Below are positions 9,190 through 64,000 of a stretch of 64,000 bases of DNA, one piece after another. Position 1 is the stretch's first letter; every line of letters begins with the position of its first letter. Source of the DNA: Candidatus Iainarchaeum sp. (GTDB lineage: Archaea > Iainarchaeota > Iainarchaeia > Iainarchaeales > JAGVWC01); NCBI GenBank assembly GCA_018304465.1, contig JAGVWC010000010.1, positions 62,001 to 126,000 on the forward strand, in the 5' to 3' direction. The position numbers were made by a program, and so were the translations under genes. The notes under the pieces were generated by a model that saw only the letters and a program-made list of their open reading frames with translations, made no database searches and was not told where the DNA came from.

Positions 9190-10013
9190 TATTTGAGGGT
9201 GTTTTCAAACACGCCTTTGGTTGCGCCGGGATCGTAATTGAAATAAATTACTTTTCCGATGCCAAACCAGGTTTTTTCAACGACCGCGGGATACCAGGCC
9301 GGCGTCGTGACATTTTGAATGTACGCGACTTGGTTTCCGATCGGAGTCACATTGAAGGTTTCAAGGAACAACACCGCGTCCGGATCGGCGGGTGCGACTT
9401 CGATTCCTTCCATGATCTTGTGTTTGAAATCCTGTTGGAAAATCTTGGCGGTGACATGCACGGGTCGCGTACAGGTGGCCACGAAATCCTTTTCGTAATT
9501 GCATTCGACGGGCATGATGTCACCGAACGTGGCTTTCCAACCGATTACGTCGGACGCGCCATCGCGGTAAATACCCGAATCTTTGACGACGATCAGTTTT
9601 CCGCCGGTTTTGACCCAATCCTGAATCGCGTCACCTAAAACGCGCGGAACGGATTTATCGGCTTGTTTGGACTGGTCCAATAAAACGATTTTGTATTGCG
9701 CTAACTGGTCTTTGGGAGAAACCGATAACGAGCGCGCATCCCGAATCGTATAGCGCACCAAATCGCGGTCCTCGTCGAGAATCGCTTTCAATGTGGGCGA
9801 AGGCTCGCCGATGATCAACATGCGAACGGGTTCCGTTCCCAAACCGGGCAACGGCAAACTAAAAAAGCCAAATCGCGCTCCGGCATACACTGCGATAATG
9901 AGAATGATGATTAATGGAATCATGCTTTCGATATTGCTGGCCCGACTGCGAAAGCCCGTATCCGCGGGATAATCCTCGGCAGGTGCGGCACCGCCACCTT
10001 GTTCTGGATACAT
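9180..10013 (-). CDS. membrane-anchored protein with glutamine-amidotransferase-like (DUF4350-like) domain
   Basis: A 277-residue protein with a Pro/Gly-rich N-terminus, one membrane span at about residues 30-50 (IPLIIILIIAVYAGARFGFF) and an exterior or cytoplasmic alpha/beta domain. The domain begins RMLIIGEPSPTLKAIL and contains KIVLLDQSKQADKSVP and WVKTGGKLIVVKDSG, the order seen in class-I amidotransferase-like and DUF4350 domains, without the catalytic Cys nucleophile. Probably a ligand- or partner-binding domain. It is a distant paralogue of the next minus-strand gene upstream (11.1-10.2 kb); the two may form a heteromer (inference). Confidence 0.6.
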   Translation of the reverse strand: MYPEQGGGAAPAEDYPADTGFRSRASNIESMIPLIIILIIAVYAGARFGFFSLPLPGLGTEPVRMLIIGEPSPTLKAILDEDRDLVRYTIRDARSLSVSPKDQLAQYKIVLLDQSKQADKSVPRVLGDAIQDWVKTGGKLIVVKDSGIYRDGASDVIGWKATFGDIMPVECNYEKDFVATCTRPVHVTAKIFQQDFKHKIMEGIEVAPADPDAVLFLETFNVTPIGNQVAYIQNVTTPAWYPAVVEKTWFGIGKVIYFNYDPGATKGVFENTLKYLR

Positions 10014-52443: not shown

Positions 52444-53160
52444 CTATCGCGTACTCAGGCTTTGCCACAGAATCTCGTCCTTGTTTTTGACGACAATCCC
52501 GTCTTCCGTGATTTCCAACGGATGCACTTTTTTGGAATGATTGGTTCCACGCATTTTTCGCACGAAAATTCCGCGGTTAGGCGGAACGAAATACAACGCG
52601 ATGATTCCATCCGCCACGTATTGTTCCACGTTAAACGAACCGAATTCGTTTTTATCGCCGCTGGTTTCCGCGGTCAACAAGGTGGTGCAACCGAGTTTTT
52701 TGACTTCGGACAAAAACTGGAAAATCGTGTTCCGCAAAGTTCCGCGGTCGTCGATCCACATGCCCATGGCCGTTACCGAATCGATCACGAGGCGCTTGGC
52801 ACCGATTTCCTTGACCATGTTTCCGATTAACGTCAGTTGTTCTTCGACTTGCATGGAAACATCGGCTTTGGTATCGAATTGCACGCGTTCAATGCGCACC
52901 AGATTCTTGTCTTGCAGCGCTTTGAAATTCCATTTGAAATTCTGCATGTCCCAGACAATGTTTTGAATGTCGGTCTGCGCGGTAATGAAAATACCCGGTT
53001 CGCGCAACTGCGCGGCGCCGTTGTAAATGAACTGCTGGGCCAGAATCGTTTTTCCACACCCCGGTCCGCCCGCCAACACGACGCTGGCATTACGCGGAAT
53101 TCCACCGTCCAAAATTTCGTCTAATCCCGGAATCCCGGTTTTAACCCGATCAATCACCAT
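52444..53160 (-). CDS. KaiC-like RecA-superfamily ATPase
   Basis: A 238-residue KaiC homologue: VKTGIPGLDEILDGGIPRNASVVLAGGPGCGKTILA (Walker A GGPGCGKT), RLVIDSVTAMG (Walker B), and VADGIIALYF with GIFVRKMRGTNH near the C-terminus. Related to the 24.5 kb paralogue. It is adjacent to, and divergent from, the filament-like operon at 53.3 kb, where archaeal filament systems use a KaiC-like ArlH; that link is inference. Confidence 0.85.
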   Translation of the reverse strand: MVIDRVKTGIPGLDEILDGGIPRNASVVLAGGPGCGKTILAQQFIYNGAAQLREPGIFITAQTDIQNIVWDMQNFKWNFKALQDKNLVRIERVQFDTKADVSMQVEEQLTLIGNMVKEIGAKRLVIDSVTAMGMWIDDRGTLRNTIFQFLSEVKKLGCTTLLTAETSGDKNEFGSFNVEQYVADGIIALYFVPPNRGIFVRKMRGTNHSKKVHPLEITEDGIVVKNKDEILWQSLSTR

Positions 53161-53306: not shown

Positions 53307-53885
53307 ATGAATAAGAAAGGAATGGACATGGCAATCCAGATTTTTGTCGTTTTATTCGTACTCTTGGCGGTCGCCATGCTGGTACTACGACTGGTTTCGG
53401 AACAAACCCAGTCCCAAATCAAAGTCATCAACGAAGAAGCCAAAAAAGCCGAAATGTCCAAGATCAAAGCCGAATGCGACCAAGCCTGCGTCAATTGTGA
53501 CAGCCCCCAGGCCCAAGTGGGGTTTTGTCTAAAACTCATTCAATCCAGTTTATTCGAAGCCAAAGGCGCCATGGATTTTGACGGCGACGGCTTTGCCAAC
53601 GCGTACGTGGAAGAACAAGTCGGACAATACACCGGCGGACTCTACGGATTATGCGAAGACCAGATTTACTGCTCGCAAATTTCGCCCTGTAAATGCGGAA
53701 ACCGCACCTTGGACATGCGCAATTGCTTTAACGTGATCTGCGACTATTGGGAAAAACAAGGCGCGGACATTCCGATGCTGATGCAAAAATTCTTTCCGGC
53801 CCCCACCTGTGATATGAGCGACGAGGAACTCCAACGCCACTGGATCGTGAATTACCAGCAACTTATGTCCTGCGGAAGCGCGTAA
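53307..53885 (+). CDS. pilin-like protein 1 with Cys-rich ectodomain
   Basis: A 192-residue protein starting MNKKGMDMAIQIFVVLFVLLAVAMLVL: KKGMD followed by a hydrophobic helix is the class III (type IV pilin-like) signal. The ectodomain has about twelve Cys and MDFDGDGFANAYVEE, an EF-hand or dockerin-type D-x-D-x-D-G loop. First gene of a six-gene operon. Confidence 0.7.
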   Translation: MNKKGMDMAIQIFVVLFVLLAVAMLVLRLVSEQTQSQIKVINEEAKKAEMSKIKAECDQACVNCDSPQAQVGFCLKLIQSSLFEAKGAMDFDGDGFANAYVEEQVGQYTGGLYGLCEDQIYCSQISPCKCGNRTLDMRNCFNVICDYWEKQGADIPMLMQKFFPAPTCDMSDEELQRHWIVNYQQLMSCGSA

Positions 53886-53900
53886 TGATTCCTTGATTTT

Positions 53901-54320
53901 ATGGAACAAGCCATTTGGTTTTATGTGGGCATCATCGGAGCCATTGTCGGACTCGGATTACTGGCCTCGGTCGTTTTGATCAACGAAAACGCGTCCAAAC
54001 ACCAAGTCGCCCAGAACAGCATCCGGTTGCTCGAACAAAAATGCAATTTCGTCTGCAGTTCCGATTTAGATACCTTGCAATCGGTCGATGTCGAATTGTC
54101 CAGCGGAATGGTCATGTACAGCAATCAAACCGCGCTTTGCATCGCGCTTCAGGACAAGCAATACTGCCGCCCGTGCAACTGCAAAATAACCGATTCCAAC
54201 AACGCGAATTTTCGATTCGATTTGAACACGAGCGAAGCCGTCGAATTGTTTTCCACCCACACCTTCAACTGCAGCTTTGAAAAAAACATAGGCGGGGTTT
54301 TGCTTGCGTGCGCGGGGTAG
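53901..54320 (+). CDS. pilin-like protein 2
   Basis: A 139-residue protein with an N-terminal helix FYVGIIGAIVGLGLLASVVLI directly after a short MEQAIW, and an ectodomain with cysteines in CNFVCSSD and CRPCNC. Fifteen bases after the previous gene; overlaps the next by 17 bases. Family unknown. Confidence 0.6.
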   Translation: MEQAIWFYVGIIGAIVGLGLLASVVLINENASKHQVAQNSIRLLEQKCNFVCSSDLDTLQSVDVELSSGMVMYSNQTALCIALQDKQYCRPCNCKITDSNNANFRFDLNTSEAVELFSTHTFNCSFEKNIGGVLLACAG

Positions 54321-54693
54321 CTCGGTCATCCCGGTGTTCGTCTGGATCACGATCCTCATTGTCACGATCGCGGCAAGCTACTGGTACTTATCCAAATTTT
54401 CAAGCGAAAAAAACGATTTCGAAAAAATCCAAAACGATTTGACGATTTTACGCAAAATGGTGGACGACGGATGCCAATCCGTTTACTATCAAGTCAGCTT
54501 TAACCCCGTGACGGAAACCGGCGACTTGAACATCACCAAAAACGCGATCTGCATGAATCTTCGTACATTATCGCGCTGTCAAACCCCCGTGTGCGTACAC
54601 CCGCTCACCGATGCGAATATCAACCTTTCCGACATTCGACAAATCACCGTGATCAAAAATGACACCAACACGATTACCATCACCGCAAAATAA
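54304..54693 (+). CDS. pilin-like protein 3
   Basis: A 129-residue protein: short basic start (RARGSSVIP), membrane helix VFVWITILIVTIAASYWYL, then an ectodomain with four cysteines (VDDGCQSVYYQ, AICMNL, SRCQTPVCVHP). The start appears to be TTG at 54304, overlapping the previous gene by 17 bases. Confidence 0.6.
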   Translation: MRARGSSVIPVFVWITILIVTIAASYWYLSKFSSEKNDFEKIQNDLTILRKMVDDGCQSVYYQVSFNPVTETGDLNITKNAICMNLRTLSRCQTPVCVHPLTDANINLSDIRQITVIKNDTNTITITAK

Positions 54694-55141
54694 GGGAATC
54701 TTCGAAATTCTCTCCACATTTTTCCTAGTCATCACCATTCTCGTCGTGGTCATCGGACTGTTGTTCGTGAACGCGTTTGTCATCGGAAACGAAAACGAAG
54801 TATACCGAAAACTCGAAGTCCTCGACATCGCCAACGACGTCAAAAAAAGCGTCGCGGAATGCTTCGGCCCCATCACCCCCGCGAAAATGACGGACACCGC
54901 CTTAGGGGAACGCTGCTTGAACGCGATCAAAGCCGATGGCAAAAACCGCCTAAAAGGAATCAAAATCGAGGAACTAGAATTTCTTTCCTGCACCGCCCGA
55001 ACCGCGGAATTCGGATCCGCGACCAACTGCGCGCCGGACGGCGACCGATACGTTTTTTTGGTGCGCGTGGAAGAAGGCGCGATGTCGTGCGCCGCACGAC
55101 TCGAATTGTGTCTTCATAAAACCGGGGGGGTTCGTTCTTGA
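54659..55141 (+). CDS. pilin-like protein 4
   Basis: A 160-residue protein with an N-terminal helix GIFEILSTFFLVITILVVVIGLLFVNAFV and a Cys-containing ectodomain (AECFGPI, GERCLN, LSCTAR, SCAARLELCLH). Overlaps the previous gene by 35 bases and the vWA gene by 4 bases from TTG 55138. Confidence 0.6.
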   Translation: MTPTRLPSPQNKGIFEILSTFFLVITILVVVIGLLFVNAFVIGNENEVYRKLEVLDIANDVKKSVAECFGPITPAKMTDTALGERCLNAIKADGKNRLKGIKIEELEFLSCTARTAEFGSATNCAPDGDRYVFLVRVEEGAMSCAARLELCLHKTGGVRS

Positions 55142-55143
55142 CG

Positions 55144-57075
55144 ATGATATCCGACGTGATGTCCACCTTGGTGCTCGTGATATTGTTTTTGCTTGCCAGC
55201 GGCATCATTTTAAGCCAGAACACGACGTTTCTGCAAAACAACGCCCAGAATTCGTTTTCCGAATACCAATCCGAAAAATTATCCGCGGATTTTGAATCGA
55301 TTCTTGGAATCGACGAACCCGTTTCCCAAAAAAGCCTGGCGACGCTTTTGGGCGACGCCGTGTATTACCGAAAAATCAGTTTCAGTTATCACAACCCGAC
55401 GATCATCCCGAACGCCGACATCAATTCCTACTACAACGCGGACTCGAACCAGCTCAATATCCGGTCCGCGCTCGAAACCGTCATGGACAAGCTGTACGGA
55501 AAAAACAATTATTACCTTGAAATTTCCCCGAAACTGTTGGATCTGAGATTGTTTTTCGTGATCGACGGAAGCCCCAGTTTAAACAACGAAGCGGTGCAAC
55601 TCGTGGATTACGCCACGGGAATTCCGCGCATCGTCCGCCAATTCAAAGATTTGAACTACGGAGTGCACCCCAAAGTATTCATCATGGCCGGAGAACTGAT
55701 GCAATCCAATCCATGCCAGACATTCGAAGACAACAACATCAGCTGCGAATACGTGTACAAAGAACAGCTTTACAAAGGCGTCGCGACCCCCGGTTGGCTC
55801 GCGAAAAAAGTTGCCAACGGAAATTTTCTTTCCCAAGGAGACCAGTTCGCGGACCTCAATTTCGTTCATCCGATCGCGGCTAGCAACTGGACCGTGTCCA
55901 ACGACGAGTTCTTATCGGACGATCCGAACGCGACCACGAATCCCAACACGTTGTTTTACTGCACCTGGAAATACCTCGATTCGGTTCCCGGTCACATGGA
56001 TTTCAATTTTTCGTTCGCGCAAACCAACAGCACGAATAATTCGTACAAATCCGCAGTGTGGTTTTGGGTCAACGACCATCGATTCTCCAACGTGACCAAA
56101 GACCTCAATGTCGAGCGAAAACTCGTGTCGGGCTGGAACAAATTTTGCGTGGGATATTACACCGGCCGATCCGATTTGGGCGGAACACTCACCCCGTTTG
56201 TGCCGCGCGTCGATTACTCGGTTTCCGAAGAACGCCGCCAATCCAGCGTGTTTCCATTAAACGACTTGTACGCGTTTTTGGCGGGACCCACGTCTCCGGA
56301 CGCGAATCCAAGCCAAGCCATCGCACCGGATTTTAACGGATCGTTTTACGAAGACTGGGCATCCGGAAGCGCTTTTGCCGCCGCGAACGCCGCGCCCCAA
56401 AACCAGGCCACCATGACCATGATCATTCCCATCAGCGACGAATTATCCACGGGAAGCGAATCCGAAGAATGCCAAAACATCACGGATTTCGTCGAAAAAG
56501 GATTCTGCGAAGCCTGCAACAAGAATTATGCGTCCAGCGCCAACTACGGTTGTCCCGTGAACCGTTCCCAAAAAACCGTGGACTTCGCGGTTTCCGTGAT
56601 TCAACCCACGGGTTACTACGTGTTCCCGATTCTTGCCGACACCTGTGATATTCCCGCCTGGAAACCCGATGGACGCAACTGGTTTTGCAAGAAAAAAGGA
56701 TTCAATCCGTACGGCGGACAATGCGGAACCGATCCGTTGTGCGGCGAATGCTACGGACCCGATCCCCTGCAATGCCCGGGCCTTACCTTGAATTCCAGTT
56801 CGGTCGGATGCGACAAACTCGAATGCCGTGACGCCATCAAAACCCAAATGACGCAGTTAGCCACGGAAACCGGCGGCGAAATGATCGAACTCTCAAACCT
56901 AAACGAATTATCCGGAAAAATCGACACCAATATCCGCGGCTTGCTCGACAAATTCACGATCAAAATCGGGGTCCAGCGCCCCGATTCCGAACGATACAGT
57001 TATCACCGATTAATCCCCTTAAGCAACCGCTTATTCGCATCCGTCACGTTTTGGGTATACAACGAGCGCGAATAA
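55144..57075 (+). CDS. vWA-domain surface protein with N-terminal anchor
   Basis: A 643-residue protein: N-terminal helix DVMSTLVLVILFLLASGIIL, then a vWA-like domain with RLFFVIDGSPSLNNEAVQ (DxSxS MIDAS) near residue 150, a long beta-rich region, a Cys-rich block (CDIPAWKPDGRNWFCKKKG, CGTDPLCGECYGPDPLQC) and a return to the vWA end with ATETGGEMIELSNLNELSG. Such proteins occur in pilus tips and adhesins. ATG at 55144; TTG at 55138 also possible. Confidence 0.72.
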   Translation: MISDVMSTLVLVILFLLASGIILSQNTTFLQNNAQNSFSEYQSEKLSADFESILGIDEPVSQKSLATLLGDAVYYRKISFSYHNPTIIPNADINSYYNADSNQLNIRSALETVMDKLYGKNNYYLEISPKLLDLRLFFVIDGSPSLNNEAVQLVDYATGIPRIVRQFKDLNYGVHPKVFIMAGELMQSNPCQTFEDNNISCEYVYKEQLYKGVATPGWLAKKVANGNFLSQGDQFADLNFVHPIAASNWTVSNDEFLSDDPNATTNPNTLFYCTWKYLDSVPGHMDFNFSFAQTNSTNNSYKSAVWFWVNDHRFSNVTKDLNVERKLVSGWNKFCVGYYTGRSDLGGTLTPFVPRVDYSVSEERRQSSVFPLNDLYAFLAGPTSPDANPSQAIAPDFNGSFYEDWASGSAFAAANAAPQNQATMTMIIPISDELSTGSESEECQNITDFVEKGFCEACNKNYASSANYGCPVNRSQKTVDFAVSVIQPTGYYVFPILADTCDIPAWKPDGRNWFCKKKGFNPYGGQCGTDPLCGECYGPDPLQCPGLTLNSSSVGCDKLECRDAIKTQMTQLATETGGEMIELSNLNELSGKIDTNIRGLLDKFTIKIGVQRPDSERYSYHRLIPLSNRLFASVTFWVYNERE

Positions 57076-57120
57076 ACCCCTGACCAAAAGTATTTTAATC
57101 GGAAAGAACAGAAAGTAGCC

Positions 57121-59196
57121 ATGAGGGAAAAGAAACCTTTTTTTTCCAGGGGAAACATGGTTCCGGTCGTCATGATCGGCGTGTTGGTACTGGCATCCAT
57201 CTCGTTTTACATGGTTTCGTTTCCCCAAGTGCGCCCGCCGGTGTTACCCATTGACACCAGCCAAAACGAAACCCAAATCGCCCTTGAAAAAGCCGTGGAT
57301 TTGGGACTCATCAACTGGATGGAAAACGGGTTTGCTCCCCGCGAATCCCGCTGGTACAACAACGGCAGCTTTCCACCCGATTTAAACGAAGCCAAAGCCG
57401 GTGCCAGATCCTTTATCTCCACTGAAATCAACCTGATTTTACAAGAACTTGAATCCCAACGCGGATACAAATACATCGGAACCCCCGTGCTTGAATTCGA
57501 TTTTGATTCGGCCGTCACCACCACTGACTTGAACAAACGCGGCGTTCGCTTGACCGTATCCGGATTACGCATCATCAACGAATTAAAAGACGCGCAAGGC
57601 AACCTCAGCAAAAGCGAAAACGACGTGCACATCGTGATTTCACGCGATTACCCCGTCTGGGAAATGTACACGCAGTCATTGGAATGGAGCAAACTCGACT
57701 CCGGAAGCTTCAGCGCGAATCTCCAAGGCGAATTCGACAAAAAACCGTTTCAATCCCGCGCATGCAGCTGTAATACCGTGAGCATTCCCATCGCCGAAAA
57801 AATAAAGGAAAAATTAACCATCGACTGGGTTGACATCGACGCCAACGTCATCAAACCCGCGGTCCGCGAACTCCAACAAAAAATCGGACCCAATTTCGAC
57901 TGCAATTACACCGTTGAAGACAACAAAATTGAAAACATTCCCACCGTGGTCTCGAATTCCACTGCCACCTGCGATTGCCCCGGCGGCGAAACCGGCACCT
58001 GGATTGCCAACGGACAAAACTTCAATATTTTAGCGGCCTGGGACACCCCCGACATCGGTGCCAACGACATCCAATACGGACTCTACAACCATGTTTTTAT
58101 TCCCCGTGCGAGCACGGATCCCACCAAAGGATTCTCCGTGGTTCAAAACCTGATCTTTGAAGCCGACGCGAATCCCATAACGCCGCCTGCCGGCAACGGA
58201 ATCGCGATTGTTCAAGGAATGACCCGAAAAGTCGCGGGATTACTCGTGGTTTACTGCGAAGACCCCTCGATTCAGATTCCCGGCGAAGACACGTTTCGAC
58301 CCTTGTCCGCCAAATTCCGCATGCGATTCGCGGTTCAAAAAGGCGTGAAACCGCCAGACTTTTGCACCGATCTGGCCAACCAAGATATCTGCGGTGGCGG
58401 CGACGACAGCGGTGGCGGCGGAACCTTATGCGTCCCCTATACCCAATGCGGTTCCGACCCGAACTGTAATCGCTGCGAATGCCTGCGCGTCAACGGAACC
58501 GACGTTACCGTGATTCCCGAAGGCACGGTGCGCGGCGGCGGAAGCGACTTGGTCGCATCTTGCCGCGCCTTAGGCGGCGACTTCCAATGTCCGATTAATG
58601 TCCAGCGCAAATTCGTGTGCGATTACACCCACGACCAGCCGTGCTTTACCAAAAAATGCGATATTGTCGCGGGACAAGTCGTGGATGTCTGCATTCCGAT
58701 TCCAGACAAACGCTGCGACCCATTCTGCAATTCGTGTCAAGACAACGGAAGCGGAAGCTTCGTGTGTCAGCCCGACGATCGACTCGCCGGAATGACCTGC
58801 AAACCCGACAGCGACGCTTCCAAATCCAAGAACTGCTTTACCTGTCAACCCGGCGGCGTTTGCTCTGCGCGCGCGAATCTCGGAAACATCGTGTGTTCCA
58901 GCAATTCCGGTTGCCAAACATTCTGCAACGACACGCCGGAACAAGAAGGAAGATGCAACGTTCCAAACCAAACCCAAGTCGGAATCGTTTGCCCCAGTTA
59001 CGCGACCGGCGGCTACGATAACGAATGCCGTACCTGCGGAATCCAAAACGGAGTATTGATCTGTAAATCCGCAAACGACACCTGTGCCTTGGGATGCTGT
59101 TCCACGTCGGACGCCAAATGGGGCCGATGCATTGCATCCGGCGGCGCGTGTTGTCCGGCACTCAAAGAACTCACGGTGTGTCCCACCCCCACATAA
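57121..59196 (+). CDS. large Cys-rich surface protein with N-terminal helix
   Basis: A 691-residue protein: basic start MREKKPFFSRGN, helix VVMIGVLVLASISFYMV, an alpha/beta ectodomain, a Gly-rich linker (GGGDDSGGGGTLC) and a C-terminal third with about 40 cysteines in CxxC and CxC patterns, resembling tandem EGF- or knottin-like modules. Last gene of the operon. Function unknown; adhesion or filament-tip role is inferred from the neighbours. Confidence 0.65.
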   Translation: MREKKPFFSRGNMVPVVMIGVLVLASISFYMVSFPQVRPPVLPIDTSQNETQIALEKAVDLGLINWMENGFAPRESRWYNNGSFPPDLNEAKAGARSFISTEINLILQELESQRGYKYIGTPVLEFDFDSAVTTTDLNKRGVRLTVSGLRIINELKDAQGNLSKSENDVHIVISRDYPVWEMYTQSLEWSKLDSGSFSANLQGEFDKKPFQSRACSCNTVSIPIAEKIKEKLTIDWVDIDANVIKPAVRELQQKIGPNFDCNYTVEDNKIENIPTVVSNSTATCDCPGGETGTWIANGQNFNILAAWDTPDIGANDIQYGLYNHVFIPRASTDPTKGFSVVQNLIFEADANPITPPAGNGIAIVQGMTRKVAGLLVVYCEDPSIQIPGEDTFRPLSAKFRMRFAVQKGVKPPDFCTDLANQDICGGGDDSGGGGTLCVPYTQCGSDPNCNRCECLRVNGTDVTVIPEGTVRGGGSDLVASCRALGGDFQCPINVQRKFVCDYTHDQPCFTKKCDIVAGQVVDVCIPIPDKRCDPFCNSCQDNGSGSFVCQPDDRLAGMTCKPDSDASKSKNCFTCQPGGVCSARANLGNIVCSSNSGCQTFCNDTPEQEGRCNVPNQTQVGIVCPSYATGGYDNECRTCGIQNGVLICKSANDTCALGCCSTSDAKWGRCIASGGACCPALKELTVCPTPT

Positions 59197-59311: not shown

Positions 59312-59671
59312 ATGGTTGAAGACTCATTGGTTCAAAACGTCCGTGAGCTACTCGTGGCCAGCGGATCCGAAAAAGCCGCGATTTTGCACCTGATGGACAT
59401 GGGATTTAGCGCGCCGGAAGCCGACGACTTGATCAACAAAGCCAAACAAGGCATGGCCAACTACGAAGACTGGAAAAAAATCATGACGATTGCCCAAAAC
59501 GCGGAAGCCTCCGCCAAAGGAAACAACGACGAATTCATTGAAAAATCCGGCGAAAAAAAACGCGAAGTTCAAGGCCAGATATCCGAACTACGCACCATGA
59601 TGTCCTCGCTTAACAGTGAACTTGACACCCAAAAACCAAAAACCGAAACCAAAAAAACAAAACAACCATAA
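59312..59671 (+). CDS. helical protein with UBA-like N-terminus
   Basis: A 119-residue protein. Residues 5-45 (VRELLVASGSEKAAILHLMDMGFSAPEADDLI) look like a UBA-type three-helix bundle with M-G-F; the C-terminal half is a charged coiled coil ending in a Lys-rich tail. UBA-like domains in archaea occur in NAC-alpha. Here there is no NAC beta-barrel, so it is not NAC. Convergent with the 1313-residue gene. Confidence 0.5.
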   Translation: MVEDSLVQNVRELLVASGSEKAAILHLMDMGFSAPEADDLINKAKQGMANYEDWKKIMTIAQNAEASAKGNNDEFIEKSGEKKREVQGQISELRTMMSSLNSELDTQKPKTETKKTKQP

Positions 59672-59674
59672 GAC

Positions 59675-62600
59675 TCATTCTTTTTTCCGCACCACCGCGA
59701 TCACCCGAACAATCAGCAGCACCACCACAATCCCGCCGACCAATGGCACGACTCCCATCGAAAACAAGTCATCCGCAGGAGTGTTCGGATCCCGTGTCGA
59801 ATTTTGATCCGGATTCGTTCCGCCGGATTTGGGAAACACGGAGACCGATGATTTGGCGTTTCCTTTGGATGCCGACAACAACACCACGTTTTTTTGACCG
59901 GTCAAAAGCGCAATCCCCGCGGCGTCCGTTGCCACAGTTTCGTTTCCGTACACGATCTTGACGTCGGTCACCGGCAACCCGTTCGAATCCGAAACCATCA
60001 CCGAAAACGGTTTTCCAACGAACACATTTCCGTCATCCAAGGAAATCTGCAATGCCCCCGAAAGCGTGATCGAAGAAGCAGGCGTCGAACCCGTTGTGCG
60101 AACGAACTTGCGTAATTTGATCGATTGAAAACCGGGTTTGGATATTTCAACAAAAACCGCTTTGACATCCGCGACAAACGAAACGATTCCGTCCGGATTC
60201 GTGTCCTTATTGACATCAAAATACGTGACCCGAGCATCCGACAAGGGTTTTCCGGAAATATCCAGAACCGAAACCTCGAATGTTTTTCCGTGAACCAAAA
60301 ACGAGGGAAGAACCGCTTTTAGCGACAAGAGGGGAATCTTGGAGCAATACGCGGAACACTCGCCTTGATCCATGCATTCGAAACCCGCGCCACACGACGC
60401 ATCCGAAGCGCACAAAGGCTGTTTGCAGGCAAAAGAACAGCACAACGAACCCGCAGAACAATCCGAAGCCGCGGAACACGCCGTCGAATTCGGGGTCCCG
60501 CATTGAGCTGAACACGAATTCGGGTTGAAACAGGTTTGTCCCGACGAACAATCCGAATTGGTTTTGCAAGCCGGGGCCTTACACGCGTTTTGACAGCAAA
60601 AAAAACCCGAAGAACAATTTCCATCGCCCGTACACGCCGAAGCGGGTGGACACGAAACCGCCGACGCGACTCCGTTGCAACAAAAACCGCTTGAAACCGT
60701 CGCGGAACCGCATTGACAGGGCGACGAAACCGGACCCGAAGGACAAGCTGAATTGTTTTGACAAACCGCCGAACACGAATTGGGGTTTCCACACGAAAGA
60801 CCCGTCGGACAATCGGGATTTCCCGTGCAAACAGCCCGAAGTGCAAATACGCCGCTACAGCAAATGCCGCTTGTGCGTTCGTTTCCGCCGCACAAACATT
60901 TTCCGTTAATAGGGCCATCGGGACACAATGCCGTCATGTTTCGATACGCCGTCCACATTTCCCCGAAAAAAGCCGAACCATGATATCCCTGATCCTTGTT
61001 TGATCCGTGATACGTTGGAAAACGCCCGATGCCATCCGCCGCGTTGGTATCCAAAATACAGCTGCCCGCCGGATTCGGTCCGAATGTTTTTCCGTAATTG
61101 TCCCGGCTGTACACGCAAAACCCGCCCGCGCACGCACTGGCTTCGGTTGCCGGAGTACACGATTGACCCGGATTCGTTCCCCCCGAACACGTGCCTTTGT
61201 CCGGAGGCGCGCATACATCCGGCTGGCTCCAGCCGCCGACACTCACCCAACGATCGACAAAATCAAGAAACTCTTCGTCGTTCCAAGCCTGACGAAGCAA
61301 AGGAATGGATCGAACCGCAAGCGCGGTTCCTTTCCAATTCTGGGAATTAGCGGAAAACAAGTAACCGCCGCCCGGATGCCTTCCGCCATCCACGTATCCA
61401 TACGGATCCCGACAGGTACGGCTGCCGGTATCCTCAATGACATTGTTCCAGTACTGGGTTTCCGAACACCCCGGTTGTCCGTACAACGGACGATTGGCCA
61501 CCGGGCTGAAAAACACGCTTCCGTTTTCCGAAAACACGTCTTCTCCCGCGGTCGCCGAAAGCAACCGCATCGCGTTGTTATCCAACAACACGCCGGCAAA
61601 CGCGATCGCTAATTTGCGGCCGTCGCTATGGCCTCCGTTCGGCGGCCATTTTCCGTTGTTTTGCGCCACGTGAAACAAATCGATTCCGTTTTGTAAAAAA
61701 TTGATGGTTGCCTGTCGCTTGGCGGAAACCGGATCATTTAACATCAATCGTAACACCGTTACCGCGCTTTGCGTGGCAATATCCGAACCATAATCCGGCA
61801 TGTTGTCGGCGGGATGCATGACACGACCCATCCAATTGGTTTTGTGATCCAATTGAACGCGGTTATACCAGCCTTCAAGGGTTGAAAGCGACGGGGGATT
61901 TGCGGTCGGCGCCAAGGAAGGCAAGCGATCAAACCGAATGTCATTGACCGAATACAATGGTTTTTGGGAACCGAAATACGGCGGACGAAACAAACTCTGG
62001 CCTTGATCCACGGGAACCGCATCCAGCACGGTTAACACTACCGCGGTTTTCAGGCACGGTCTACAATCCGCATCGTTTAAGGGTTCACTCGAAACGCTTT
62101 TGACGATTGATTTTCCGCCGGTAACCGTTAACGGCAACGATGGAACCAGACTTGGTTTGAATGCTCCGATGCGCGCGTCAAATCCCTGATCGTCGATGCT
62201 CGACGGATTGATTTCGAACCCGTGATGACTGCCATCAAAACCCGGTGACACTAAAACCAACGAAACGGGTCCACGCACCCAAAAATCGCCGTTGGCAAAT
62301 TGTCCGACCCGATATCCCTTGTCGAAATTAAACGTCACGCCATGCTGGGAAACACTCGATTGACACGCGGGACAATTGCCTCCGCAATCGATTCCGGTTT
62401 CGGGCGCGTCCAGCAAATTATTCGAACACACGCCTGCCGCCAAGTCAATCGAATACAAATGCACCGCCAGCTGGGAAAAATCATCCGAAAAAGAACCGTT
62501 CGAAAACGCAATGGATCGGTTTTCATCGATCACGCCAATCGTGCCGGTTGAAATAGGCAAACCAGAAAACGAAAACGTGACTCGTCCGGTTTTTCTAGTA

Positions 62601-63616
62601 GCGGGATTGTAATTCTTATCGCCTTCCACCGCGAAAACGTACAATACATTTCCTTTTTGCCGGATCATGACCTGCATGTTCAAATCATTCGTGACCGCGG
62701 TTGAAACCGAGACCCCCGCGACTTCGGGTGATAGAATCGCTTCCGATAACTGCGTGATTTGACGGTTCGTGCGAACCATTTCGTCTTTGATGCTTTGCGT
62801 CAGGTTAATGTATCGAAACGGATTGAAAGAAATCGTAAAGTATCCGAGGCCTTTGGCGCCATGAACGATGGATAACCATGCTTCCGCCCGCATTTCATAA
62901 TCCAAGGGCCCCCGGGTTGCAGGAATCGTCCAGGAAAGGCCTTGATCCGAGGCTTCGATAATGGGCCAGACGGGTTTTGAGCGGCCCACATACTCGTCAT
63001 ACATGACCCGCGTCATGTCCCCCAATTCGTAAATGCGATGATACGCGTTGTTCCAGCCGGTAACCGGGTAATGATCATATGAAATAATCGAACCGTTTTC
63101 CGTATAGCGGTTAAACCATGCGAAATTGCCATCCATCCATTTTCCGCAACTCGCCCGATAATACGAGTAAAAACTCGCGGTCATCAGGTTCACCGAAAAC
63201 GCGTTGGGATACTGGGCTTTGTATTGGGCTTCTCGACTAGCGATCGCAGCCGCGGTTTCTTTGGGGGCCGTGGTTCCGCATTCTTGTTCATGCACCAGCA
63301 AATACACCAAAAACGCCGGATGATTCACGGTTTGCTCCGACAAATACTGATAGCCCGGAATCATGAACAAACCGTATTCCTGACCCTTGTTCAGCCAGTT
63401 AACCACGTCCCCATCGCTGCCATCATACCCCATAATGGTGTTGACGCCTAACACCGCATGATCATCCACATAGTTTCCCGGTTCATCCCAAGCAAAAATC
63501 GGAAAAAACGGTTTTCCATCCACAATCAATTCGTTGTTCGGACCCATCGAAACGGTTTTGGCCGAAACCGCCGACAAAACCAACACAAAAACGGCGATCC
63601 AAATCAAAAAATTCAA
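59675..63616 (-). CDS. giant secreted protein with glycosidase-like N-terminus and Cys-rich repeats
   Basis: A 1313-residue exported protein: signal LIWIAVFVLVLSAVSA, then a barrel-like region (GKPFFPIFAWDEPGN, NTIMGYDGSDGDVVNWLNKG, YDHYPVTGWNN, WPIIEASDQG) typical of glycoside hydrolase TIM barrels, a second large domain, a chain of Cys-rich repeats with C-x6-D-C and CC motifs, two carboxypeptidase-regulatory-like beta domains and a C-terminal helix VVPLVGGIVVVLLIVRVIAVV with KK tail. Start is TTG at 63616, overlapping the upstream stop (TTGA). A polysaccharide-degrading or -binding surface protein is inferred. Confidence 0.65.
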   Translation of the reverse strand: MNFLIWIAVFVLVLSAVSAKTVSMGPNNELIVDGKPFFPIFAWDEPGNYVDDHAVLGVNTIMGYDGSDGDVVNWLNKGQEYGLFMIPGYQYLSEQTVNHPAFLVYLLVHEQECGTTAPKETAAAIASREAQYKAQYPNAFSVNLMTASFYSYYRASCGKWMDGNFAWFNRYTENGSIISYDHYPVTGWNNAYHRIYELGDMTRVMYDEYVGRSKPVWPIIEASDQGLSWTIPATRGPLDYEMRAEAWLSIVHGAKGLGYFTISFNPFRYINLTQSIKDEMVRTNRQITQLSEAILSPEVAGVSVSTAVTNDLNMQVMIRQKGNVLYVFAVEGDKNYNPATRKTGRVTFSFSGLPISTGTIGVIDENRSIAFSNGSFSDDFSQLAVHLYSIDLAAGVCSNNLLDAPETGIDCGGNCPACQSSVSQHGVTFNFDKGYRVGQFANGDFWVRGPVSLVLVSPGFDGSHHGFEINPSSIDDQGFDARIGAFKPSLVPSLPLTVTGGKSIVKSVSSEPLNDADCRPCLKTAVVLTVLDAVPVDQGQSLFRPPYFGSQKPLYSVNDIRFDRLPSLAPTANPPSLSTLEGWYNRVQLDHKTNWMGRVMHPADNMPDYGSDIATQSAVTVLRLMLNDPVSAKRQATINFLQNGIDLFHVAQNNGKWPPNGGHSDGRKLAIAFAGVLLDNNAMRLLSATAGEDVFSENGSVFFSPVANRPLYGQPGCSETQYWNNVIEDTGSRTCRDPYGYVDGGRHPGGGYLFSANSQNWKGTALAVRSIPLLRQAWNDEEFLDFVDRWVSVGGWSQPDVCAPPDKGTCSGGTNPGQSCTPATEASACAGGFCVYSRDNYGKTFGPNPAGSCILDTNAADGIGRFPTYHGSNKDQGYHGSAFFGEMWTAYRNMTALCPDGPINGKCLCGGNERTSGICCSGVFALRAVCTGNPDCPTGLSCGNPNSCSAVCQNNSACPSGPVSSPCQCGSATVSSGFCCNGVASAVSCPPASACTGDGNCSSGFFCCQNACKAPACKTNSDCSSGQTCFNPNSCSAQCGTPNSTACSAASDCSAGSLCCSFACKQPLCASDASCGAGFECMDQGECSAYCSKIPLLSLKAVLPSFLVHGKTFEVSVLDISGKPLSDARVTYFDVNKDTNPDGIVSFVADVKAVFVEISKPGFQSIKLRKFVRTTGSTPASSITLSGALQISLDDGNVFVGKPFSVMVSDSNGLPVTDVKIVYGNETVATDAAGIALLTGQKNVVLLSASKGNAKSSVSVFPKSGGTNPDQNSTRDPNTPADDLFSMGVVPLVGGIVVVLLIVRVIAVVRKKE

Positions 63617-64000
63617 ACAGCGGATTTTGGATACCCCCGATTCATCCAGCGCAAAAACAAAATCAACCCCAACAACCCGACCGCCAAACTTCCGGCAACA
63701 AACACCCAGTCAATTCCGTCCGCGGGTGAAACAATCGGATCGGAACCGGAATTGGTTTCTCCGCCCGAGGTCTTCGGAAAAACCGTCAATAAGGGGAGAA
63801 TACGGTTCATTTCATCCAATAGGACGCCGGAATTATTAATAATTTCGAATTATCCGGTCACGAATACTTTTTGGGTTTTTTCGCTGAAAAACACGTACAA
63901 GGATTTACCCGGGTTCGAAAGATCCGTCAAAGCCGGATCCAGATTTTCGGGGTTGATATCTTGAATCGGGTTTCCTTCAATCGGACCATGCAAAATATAG
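63613..64000 (-). pseudogene. 3' part of surface-protein gene with in-frame TAA
   Basis: The frame enters at 64000, reads LHGPIEGNPIQDINPENLDP ... EKTQKVFVTG, hits TAA at 63852-63850, and continues in the same frame as FEIINNSGVLLDEMNRILP with a C-terminal membrane helix (VFVAGSLAVGLLGLILFL) to TGA at 63613. The sense after the stop and the TTGA coupling to the next gene argue the 3' part is meant to be translated. Either two proteins (the second initiating at TTG 63819) or a nonsense mutation. Confidence 0.5.

What the first reader, a model, noticed from the sequence alone, without database searches (positions are those of the whole stretch)
53307..59196. Six-gene operon of pilin-like and vWA surface proteins
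Six overlapping or closely spaced genes all start with a single hydrophobic helix. The first has a KKGMD class III signal; four small ones have Cys-rich ectodomains; then a vWA protein with a MIDAS and a 691-residue protein with about 40 cysteines. This resembles minor-pilin plus tip-adhesin arrangements but with no assembly ATPase nearby and disulfide-rich subunits, so it may be an undescribed filament or adhesion complex.
Basis: partly seen in the sequence, partly recalled or inferred. Interest (0 to 1): 0.68.

Follow-up and report, generated by a model that had tools for sequence, protein, structure and literature searches.

The report
Divergent archaeal pilus with swappable tips
These six genes are half of an eleven-gene set that probably builds a thin surface filament (a type IV pilus) in a tiny uncultured archaeon, with large tip proteins whose outer domains differ between relatives, which may decide what the cell sticks to.

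Summary
The six genes are real and conserved: orthologues occur in other Candidatus Diapherotrites, in the same order in the best-assembled relative (G057). In G057 all eleven genes form one colinear operon; here the five-gene half is inverted and split off by a 1313-aa surface-protein gene. In 87 genomes of the phylum the special ATPase occurs in 7 and strong p1/p2 hits in 8, including all 7. Prepilin (class III) leaders are found on four of the six products (p1, p3, p4, large), not only the first; p2, the vWA protein and two further pilin-like proteins have none. The tip proteins are modular: vWA, PKD, HExxH-protease-like or Cys-rich ends come and go between relatives. Best reading: a divergent archaeal type IV pilus whose vWA and large proteins form a variable tip or adhesin complex. 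New variant of a known kind; function untested.

The parts
53307..53885 (+). p1, 192 aa, prepilin-like: KKG|MDMAIQIFVVLFVLLAVAMLVL, 12 Cys
   Evidence: [K/R]G leader in 7 of 7 homologues; 10 invariant Cys in 5 rows; profile hit in 7 of 87 genomes
53901..54320 (+). p2, 139 aa, leaderless pilin-like (MEQAIWFYVG...), 8 Cys
   Evidence: 8 invariant Cys in 5 rows; no K/R-G leader in 8 of 8 homologues, no alternative start upstream in 5 of 8; strong profile hit in 8 of 87 genomes
54304..54693 (+). p3, 129 aa, prepilin-like (RARG|SSVIPVF), 4 Cys
   Evidence: K/R immediately before the G in 4 of 8 homologues, another residue before the G in 3, none clear in 1
54659..55141 (+). p4, 160 aa, prepilin-like (NKG|IFEILSTFFL), 6 Cys; extended to 596 and 473 aa in G028 and G063
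55138..57075 (+). vWA protein, 645 aa, leaderless N-terminal helix, 16 Cys, candidate tip or tip-adhesin subunit
   Evidence: weak profile support; fold support only for the G017 homologue
55564..55578 (+). MIDAS-type motif DGSPS (residues 143-147); DGSSS in G057, DTSKS in G017 and G054, DNSQG in G027
   Evidence: meaning of the motif is recalled
57121..59196 (+). large protein, 691 aa, prepilin-like leader SRG|NMVPVVMIG, 42 Cys; conserved N-terminal part, Cys-rich C-terminal part seen only here and in G057
   Evidence: [K/R]G|N leader in 6 of 6 homologues
59312..59671 (+). 119-aa soluble protein, possibly linked: a weakly similar gene follows the operon in G057
   Evidence: 31.6% over 57 aa, E 5.7e-5
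63850..64000 (-). p0, 131-aa pilin-like protein MEMPIAIVITLF..., 3' part only; the gene continues past the edge to C15:126245, and beyond it lie the MQAIE pilin-like gene (C15:126292-126702), TadC-like (126804-128681), ATPase (128695-130383) and helical protein (130405-131076), all on the - strand
   Evidence: coordinates from L022 = C15:126001 onward

Best explanation
The six genes are the subunit half of a divergent archaeal type IV pilus (T4P) system of Candidatus Diapherotrites; the motor half is next door past the window edge. Likely working: p1, p3, p4 and the large protein are made with class III leaders, inserted into the membrane and trimmed by one of two A24 prepilin peptidases in the genome; the TadA-type ATPase, acting through the TadC-like platform, pushes them into a thin filament whose heads are stapled by disulphides. 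p1 is the best candidate for the main shaft subunit; p3, p4, the vWA protein and the large protein most likely make the priming/tip complex and show vWA, Cys-rich or (in relatives) PKD and HExxH domains at the end, for binding a partner cell or surface. p2, p0 and the MQAIE protein are leaderless membrane-anchored subunits of the base or filament. Shown: gene content, order, co-occurrence, leaders, motifs, ATPase family. Inferred: filament formation, which subunit is major, tip position, binding role.
For: ATPase matches T2SSE above the Pfam cut-off (71.5 vs 24.9 bits) and matches solved archaeal GspE2-type, FlaI and bacterial CpaF ATPases. The platform protein of G027 is alignable to a T2SSF-positive paralogue, and the G017 one to an annotated haloarchaeal 'secretion system protein' beside its ATPase. 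G057 holds all eleven genes colinear on one strand; G017, G028, G027 and G054 carry most or all of the same set, clustered as far as their contigs go. Special ATPase >500 bits in 7 of 87 genomes, next best 166 bits; strong p1 or p2 in 8 of 87, including all 7. Two A24 peptidases over cut-off in the own genome. Conserved K/R-G leaders and invariant Cys.
Against: None of the six has a Pfam or NCBIfam hit above cut-off, so the pilin nature is inferred from leader plus helix and context only; PHROGs was not searched. AF2 of the window vWA protein failed. The platform protein has no Pfam hit at E 0.1. p1 has D or E at +2 in 6 of 7 homologues, not typical of the archaeal leader consensus as I recall it. 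Four subunit families have no leader, unusual for incorporated pilins. p4 was not seen beside p3 in G017 and G054. No VKOR for disulphide formation was found in the own genome. In the own genome the two halves are separated and convergent, so they are not one transcript there.
Confidence: 0.8

Rival explanations
1. A non-filamentous, membrane-anchored adhesion or secretion complex (pseudopilus-like piston) that uses the T4P-type motor to push out or display the vWA, protease-like and Cys-rich proteins rather than a long pilus.
For: Half of the subunit families are leaderless; the large subunits carry enzyme-like HExxH domains in relatives; no clear abundant major pilin is distinguishable.
Against: Class III leaders on p1, p3, p4 and large fit a filament, but pseudopilins have leaders too, so sequence alone does not separate this rival from the main reading.
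Confidence: 0.3
2. A variant of the archaellum (swimming filament).
For: The ATPase is related to FlaI (NCBIfam FlaI model 106 bits). A KaiC-family ATPase gene lies divergently at 52444-53160, superficially like FlaH.
Against: The FlaI equivalog cut-off of 550 bits is far from met; I saw no KaiC-type gene beside the cluster in the relatives read (first residues of each ORF read by eye).
Confidence: 0.03
3. Independent surface proteins that happen to be neighbours, with no joint assembly.
For: In the own genome the halves are separated; p4 was not seen next to p3 in G017 or G054.
Against: Conserved order and co-occurrence in 8 of 87 genomes at 19-60% protein identity.
Confidence: 0.03

Closest known systems
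Archaeal type IV pili, Makarova, Koonin and Albers 2016 (PMC4858521; abstract, sections 7 and 12 and passages read)
   Same: TadA/VirB11-type ATPase plus TadC plus several pilins in one locus. Their subclade 4F ATPases often have an N-terminal Cys-rich domain and, in haloarchaea, a coiled-coil partner; our ATPase has CxxCxG...C near its N-terminus and a helical neighbour gene.
   Different: Our pilins match no curated family; the set has eight subunit genes including a vWA and a large Cys-rich protein. [quoted passage not shown] Placement of our ATPase in 4F was not tested.
DPANN T4P 'dark matter' islands, Makarova et al. 2019 (PMC6393860; section 6 and passages read, figure not held)
   Same: States that some DPANN genomes have T4P loci whose pilins are undetectable by similarity and are recognised by ATPase, TadC, surface proteins and signal peptides.
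   Different: Whether its Figure 2A shows this very system could not be seen; the text read names neither a vWA/HExxH tip nor leaderless subunits.
Tad pili with adaptable tips (Kil system, Myxococcus; PMC12075869, passages read)
   Same: One pilus motor with large minor pilins whose end domains vary; tips shown there to matter for prey contact and killing; TadG-like minor pilins discussed.
   Different: Bacterial, different ATPase subfamily (TIGR03819 cut-off not met by ours); the tip is shown by genetics there and only inferred here.
Haloterrigena turkmenica pHTUR04 ATPase/platform pair (HTUR_RS24145/24140)
   Same: Best ATPase match in the plasmid collection, 38.4%, E 5e-53 over residues 128-420, followed by a platform protein.
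   Different: Its N-terminal part is different and no pilin set like ours is annotated beside it in the stretch read.

Membership tests
Archaeal type IV pilus (type IV filament) | secretion ATPase of the TadA/GspE/VirB11 family in the locus | tested here: met
   T2SSE 71.5 bits over cut-off 24.9; synteny
Archaeal type IV pilus (type IV filament) | TadC/FlaJ-type platform protein | tested here: inconclusive
   625 aa with several hydrophobic segments; G027 orthologue alignable to a T2SSF-positive paralogue at E 1.8e-7, but no Pfam hit of its own
Archaeal type IV pilus (type IV filament) | subunits with class III prepilin leader followed by a hydrophobic helix | tested here: met
   [K/R]G before the helix in p1 7 of 7, p4 5 of 6, large 6 of 6, p3 4 of 8; consensus recalled; p2, vWA, MQAIE and most p0 lack it
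Archaeal type IV pilus (type IV filament) | A24 prepilin peptidase in the genome | tested here: met
   two over cut-off, contig C6
Archaeal type IV pilus (type IV filament) | assembly into a helical filament | not testable with these tools
   needs microscopy
Subclade 4F archaeal T4P (Makarova 2016) | ATPase N-terminal Cys-rich domain | tested here: met
   C8, C11, G13, D16, C22 invariant in the four rows of A1; also seen in other clades according to the paper
Subclade 4F archaeal T4P (Makarova 2016) | position in the ATPase tree | not tested
   no named 4F references at hand
Archaellum | FlaI-equivalog ATPase | tested here: not met
   106.2 bits, cut-off 550
Bacterial Tad pilus | TadA-family ATPase model TIGR03819 over its cut-off | tested here: not met
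   105.9 bits, cut-off 373
von Willebrand A domain (645-aa protein) | MIDAS DxSxS plus later Asp | tested here: met
   DGSPS and SDE in window, DGSSS in G057, DTSKS in G017 and G054; DNSQG (last Ser missing) in G027
von Willebrand A domain (645-aa protein) | vWA fold or profile over cut-off | tested here: inconclusive
   Pfam VWA 14.1 bits vs 23.8 for the G057 protein, no hit for the window protein; integrin beta-8 E 0.018; window model failed; G017 region model pLDDT 54, pTM 0.60: Foldseek nothing at E 0.001, second look topped by vWA-type chains, Z 8-9
Zinc metallopeptidase (HExxH module in G017, G028, G054) | known peptidase family profile over cut-off | tested here: not met
   Reprolysin_5 18 bits vs 27 for the second G028 domain; no PDB relative at E 0.1; the motif itself is invariant as HE.GH in three rows

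The most novel reading that the evidence does not exclude
A pilus of small-genome archaea with interchangeable payload tips (vWA, PKD plus a family of HExxH protease-like domains, Cys-rich knots), used to recognise and open the envelope of a partner cell, and built partly from pilins that are born mature: the start codon sits at the +1 position of the mature chain, bypassing the prepilin peptidase (p0, MQAIE, p2, vWA protein). p0 shows both states: KG|MELPI in G057 but a bare MEMPI/MELPI start in G000, G017 and G048.
Probability: 0.18. Interest if true: 0.75.

Novelty: new variant of a known kind. Interest (0 to 1): 0.5.

Why it matters
How DPANN archaea recognise and hold their partners is open; pilus-like structures are suspected (PMC6642349, passages read, names Diapherotrites among lineages with putative pilus-like structures). 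This locus gives a bounded parts list for one such machine, with the tip proteins singled out as the fast-changing, modular parts. It also supplies candidate cognate pilins for a divergent ATPase type, and makes the odd idea of leaderless pilins directly testable by N-terminal mass spectrometry.

Tried and rejected
The genome-contig scan with the vWA protein found nothing; the ATPase N-terminal alignment worked (4 loci, all titled Candidatus Diapherotrites). AF2 of the window vWA protein gave mean pLDDT 34.9 and was not searched. AF2 of the compact vWA region of the G017 homologue (not the window protein) gave pLDDT 54.1; Foldseek listed no match at E<=0.001, its top rows mixed Rossmann-like folds with Ku70/80 at ranks 3-6 and an RGLG1 VWA at 41; VIA-align then put TFIIH p34/Tfb4, VWF A1 and integrin I domains on top at Z 8.0-9.1, a height its own note calls middling. 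Alignments A7 and A8 misplaced the MIDAS strand and were dropped before folding. VKOR search of the own genome was negative. PADLOC on p1, vWA, large and the ATPase gave only a weak ATPase hit. Paper searches on leaderless pilins and dockerin pilins gave nothing on point in their listings; those on Diapherotrites or Iainarchaeum pili and on DPANN pilin with metalloprotease or von Willebrand gave only general mentions in the listings and passages seen. Archaellum and bacterial Tad membership were rejected on cut-offs.

Full report
Observation. I call them p1-p4, vWA and large. None has a Pfam or NCBIfam hit above cut-off; PADLOC was searched with p1, vWA and large only.

Where it lies. The window is C15:62001-126000 of a 1.25-Mb, 15-contig genome. 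The group is Candidatus Diapherotrites by the titles of the four loci fetched with its ATPase; the window's own record was not named.

The missing motor. T2SSE hits in the own genome include C15:129127-129846, just beyond the window. Reading on, the - strand carries p0 (131 aa; it starts past the edge and ends at window 63850), a second pilin-like protein beginning MQAIE (136 aa), a 625-aa TadC-like protein, a 562-aa ATPase and a 223-aa helical protein (called coiled-coil by eye only). Between the halves lie a 119-aa gene and a 1313-aa surface-protein gene on the - strand. So the statement that no assembly ATPase is nearby came from the window edge.

Synteny. Relatives found with the vWA protein (4 of 53 genomes including the own) carry the same parts near the same ATPase and platform. 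G057 holds one unbroken + strand operon: helical protein, ATPase, TadC-like, MQAIE, p0, p1, p2, p3, p4, vWA, large; identities to the window proteins are 58, 42, 33, 32, 38 and 31% for p1 to large. In the own genome the first five are inverted and lie downstream.

Distribution. With the ATPase N-terminal profile all 87 genomes of the phylum give some hit, because paralogues match, but scores split cleanly: 7 above 500 bits, the next 166. p1 is found in 7 of 87 (10 full-type hits, three of them extra copies in G017 and G028, plus three short hits on p0). p2 is found strongly in 8 of 87, with two weak further ones, G047 and G071. The union is 8 genomes: G000, G017, G027, G028, G048, G054, G057, G063. 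The two disagreements sit at contig ends: G063's contig starts at p2, G048's contig ends in p4. If genomes were independent, 7 ATPase genomes all falling among 8 p2 genomes of 87 has a chance of about 1e-9 (my arithmetic, 8 divided by 87-choose-7); relatedness makes this too optimistic.

Two kinds of subunit. K/R-G just before the helix is present in p1 7 of 7, p4 5 of 6 (SG in one), large 6 of 6, p3 4 of 8 (another residue before the G in 3, none clear in 1). It is absent in p2 8 of 8, vWA 6 of 6, MQAIE 5 of 5, and p0 6 of 7. For these, no alternative start codon exists between the start and the upstream in-frame stop in p2 5 of 8, vWA 4 of 6, MQAIE 4 of 5, p0 4 of 7; in G000, G017 and G048 only one codon separates the p0 start from the stop. 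p0 of G057 does have a KG leader. Start codons are predicted, not measured. Cys numbers are mostly even, and Cys are invariant in p1 (10) and p2 (8); exceptions are 5 in two p3, 3 in the own p0 and 7 in one MQAIE protein.

Modular tips. The vWA protein of G000 and G057 ends after the vWA region. In G027 a PKD-like domain follows (below Pfam's cut-off for PKD); in G017 PKD_4 (E 6e-15) and an HExxH domain follow, and the G054 protein is the same by similarity. G028 lacks the vWA region but has PKD and HExxH; G063 has a 176-aa stub. In G028 a second HExxH domain of the same family follows the large-protein gene in another frame after a Pro-rich run. The other two of these three HExxH domains are 46 and 54% identical to the first; none matches a known peptidase over cut-off. 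The profile hits 10 of 87 genomes, 5 of them outside the eight with this pilus, so the module is not exclusive to it. The Cys-rich end of the large protein occurs in G000 and G057 but not in G017, G027 or G028. p4 is 145-214 aa in four genomes (the G048 one cut by its contig end) but 596 and 473 aa in G028 and G063.

vWA support. DxSxS plus a later invariant SDE; Pfam VWA only 14.1 bits for the G057 protein; integrin beta-8 at E 0.018 over the MIDAS strand. The window model failed. For the compact G017 region the model is moderate, Foldseek undecided, the second look led by vWA-type chains (that TFIIH p34 and Sec23 hold vWA folds is recalled). I take vWA as likely, not proven.

Mechanism. See Best explanation: shown are parts, order, leaders and ATPase family; inferred are filament, tip location and binding. 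By analogy with minor-pilin tips (PMC12075869, passages read), subunits with large heads most easily sit at the tip, which fits the vWA and large proteins being the variable parts. A short pseudopilus-like piston is the strongest rival and sequence cannot exclude it.

Known or new. Archaeal T4P diversity and undetectable DPANN pilins are in print (PMC4858521, PMC6393860). I found no description of this gene set, of HExxH/vWA tips or of leaderless pilins in archaea in the listings and the passages read, but figures and supplements were not available. I file it as a new variant of a known kind.

Noticed in passing
window 59675-63616 (-): 1313-aa surface protein with N- and C-terminal hydrophobic segments and Cys-rich repeats, sitting between the two halves of the pilus locus; only a sub-threshold CarboxypepD_reg hit.
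   Followed up: partly
window 52444-53160 (-): KaiC-family ATPase (PF06745, E 2.5e-64) divergent from the operon; KaiC ATPases are named as possible T4P regulators in PMC4858521, but I saw none adjacent in the relatives read.
   Followed up: partly
L027:5313-9173 and L028:6277-10011 (own genome C13, C8): Two paralogous T2SSE ATPases each interrupted by an intein with LAGLIDADG domain.
   Followed up: partly
L085:1960-3273 (G028:C75): A solitary p1-type protein of 437 aa with a dockerin I domain behind the pilin-like part (residues 289-345, E 6e-12): a possible docking site on a pilin.
   Followed up: no
L086 (G047:C39): Divergent cousin locus: two ORFs weakly similar to the vWA protein, a weak p2-like hit, and a 48-Cys HExxH protein beside an x249-like gene.
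   Followed up: no
L101:4449-8161, L102:4028-7665, L103:6261-9937: A gene like the 249-aa protein of the G017 pilus locus is paired with a ~1000-aa HExxH protein in genomes G042, G053 and G048: a repeated two-gene module outside the pilus locus.
   Followed up: no
L032 about 9600-9720 (G028): Frame change in a Pro-rich (C-rich) run between the large protein and an HExxH domain: assembly error, real break or a switch.
   Followed up: no
L022:5830-8670 (-): 946-aa protein with 44 Cys next to the ATPase half; no Pfam hit.
   Followed up: no
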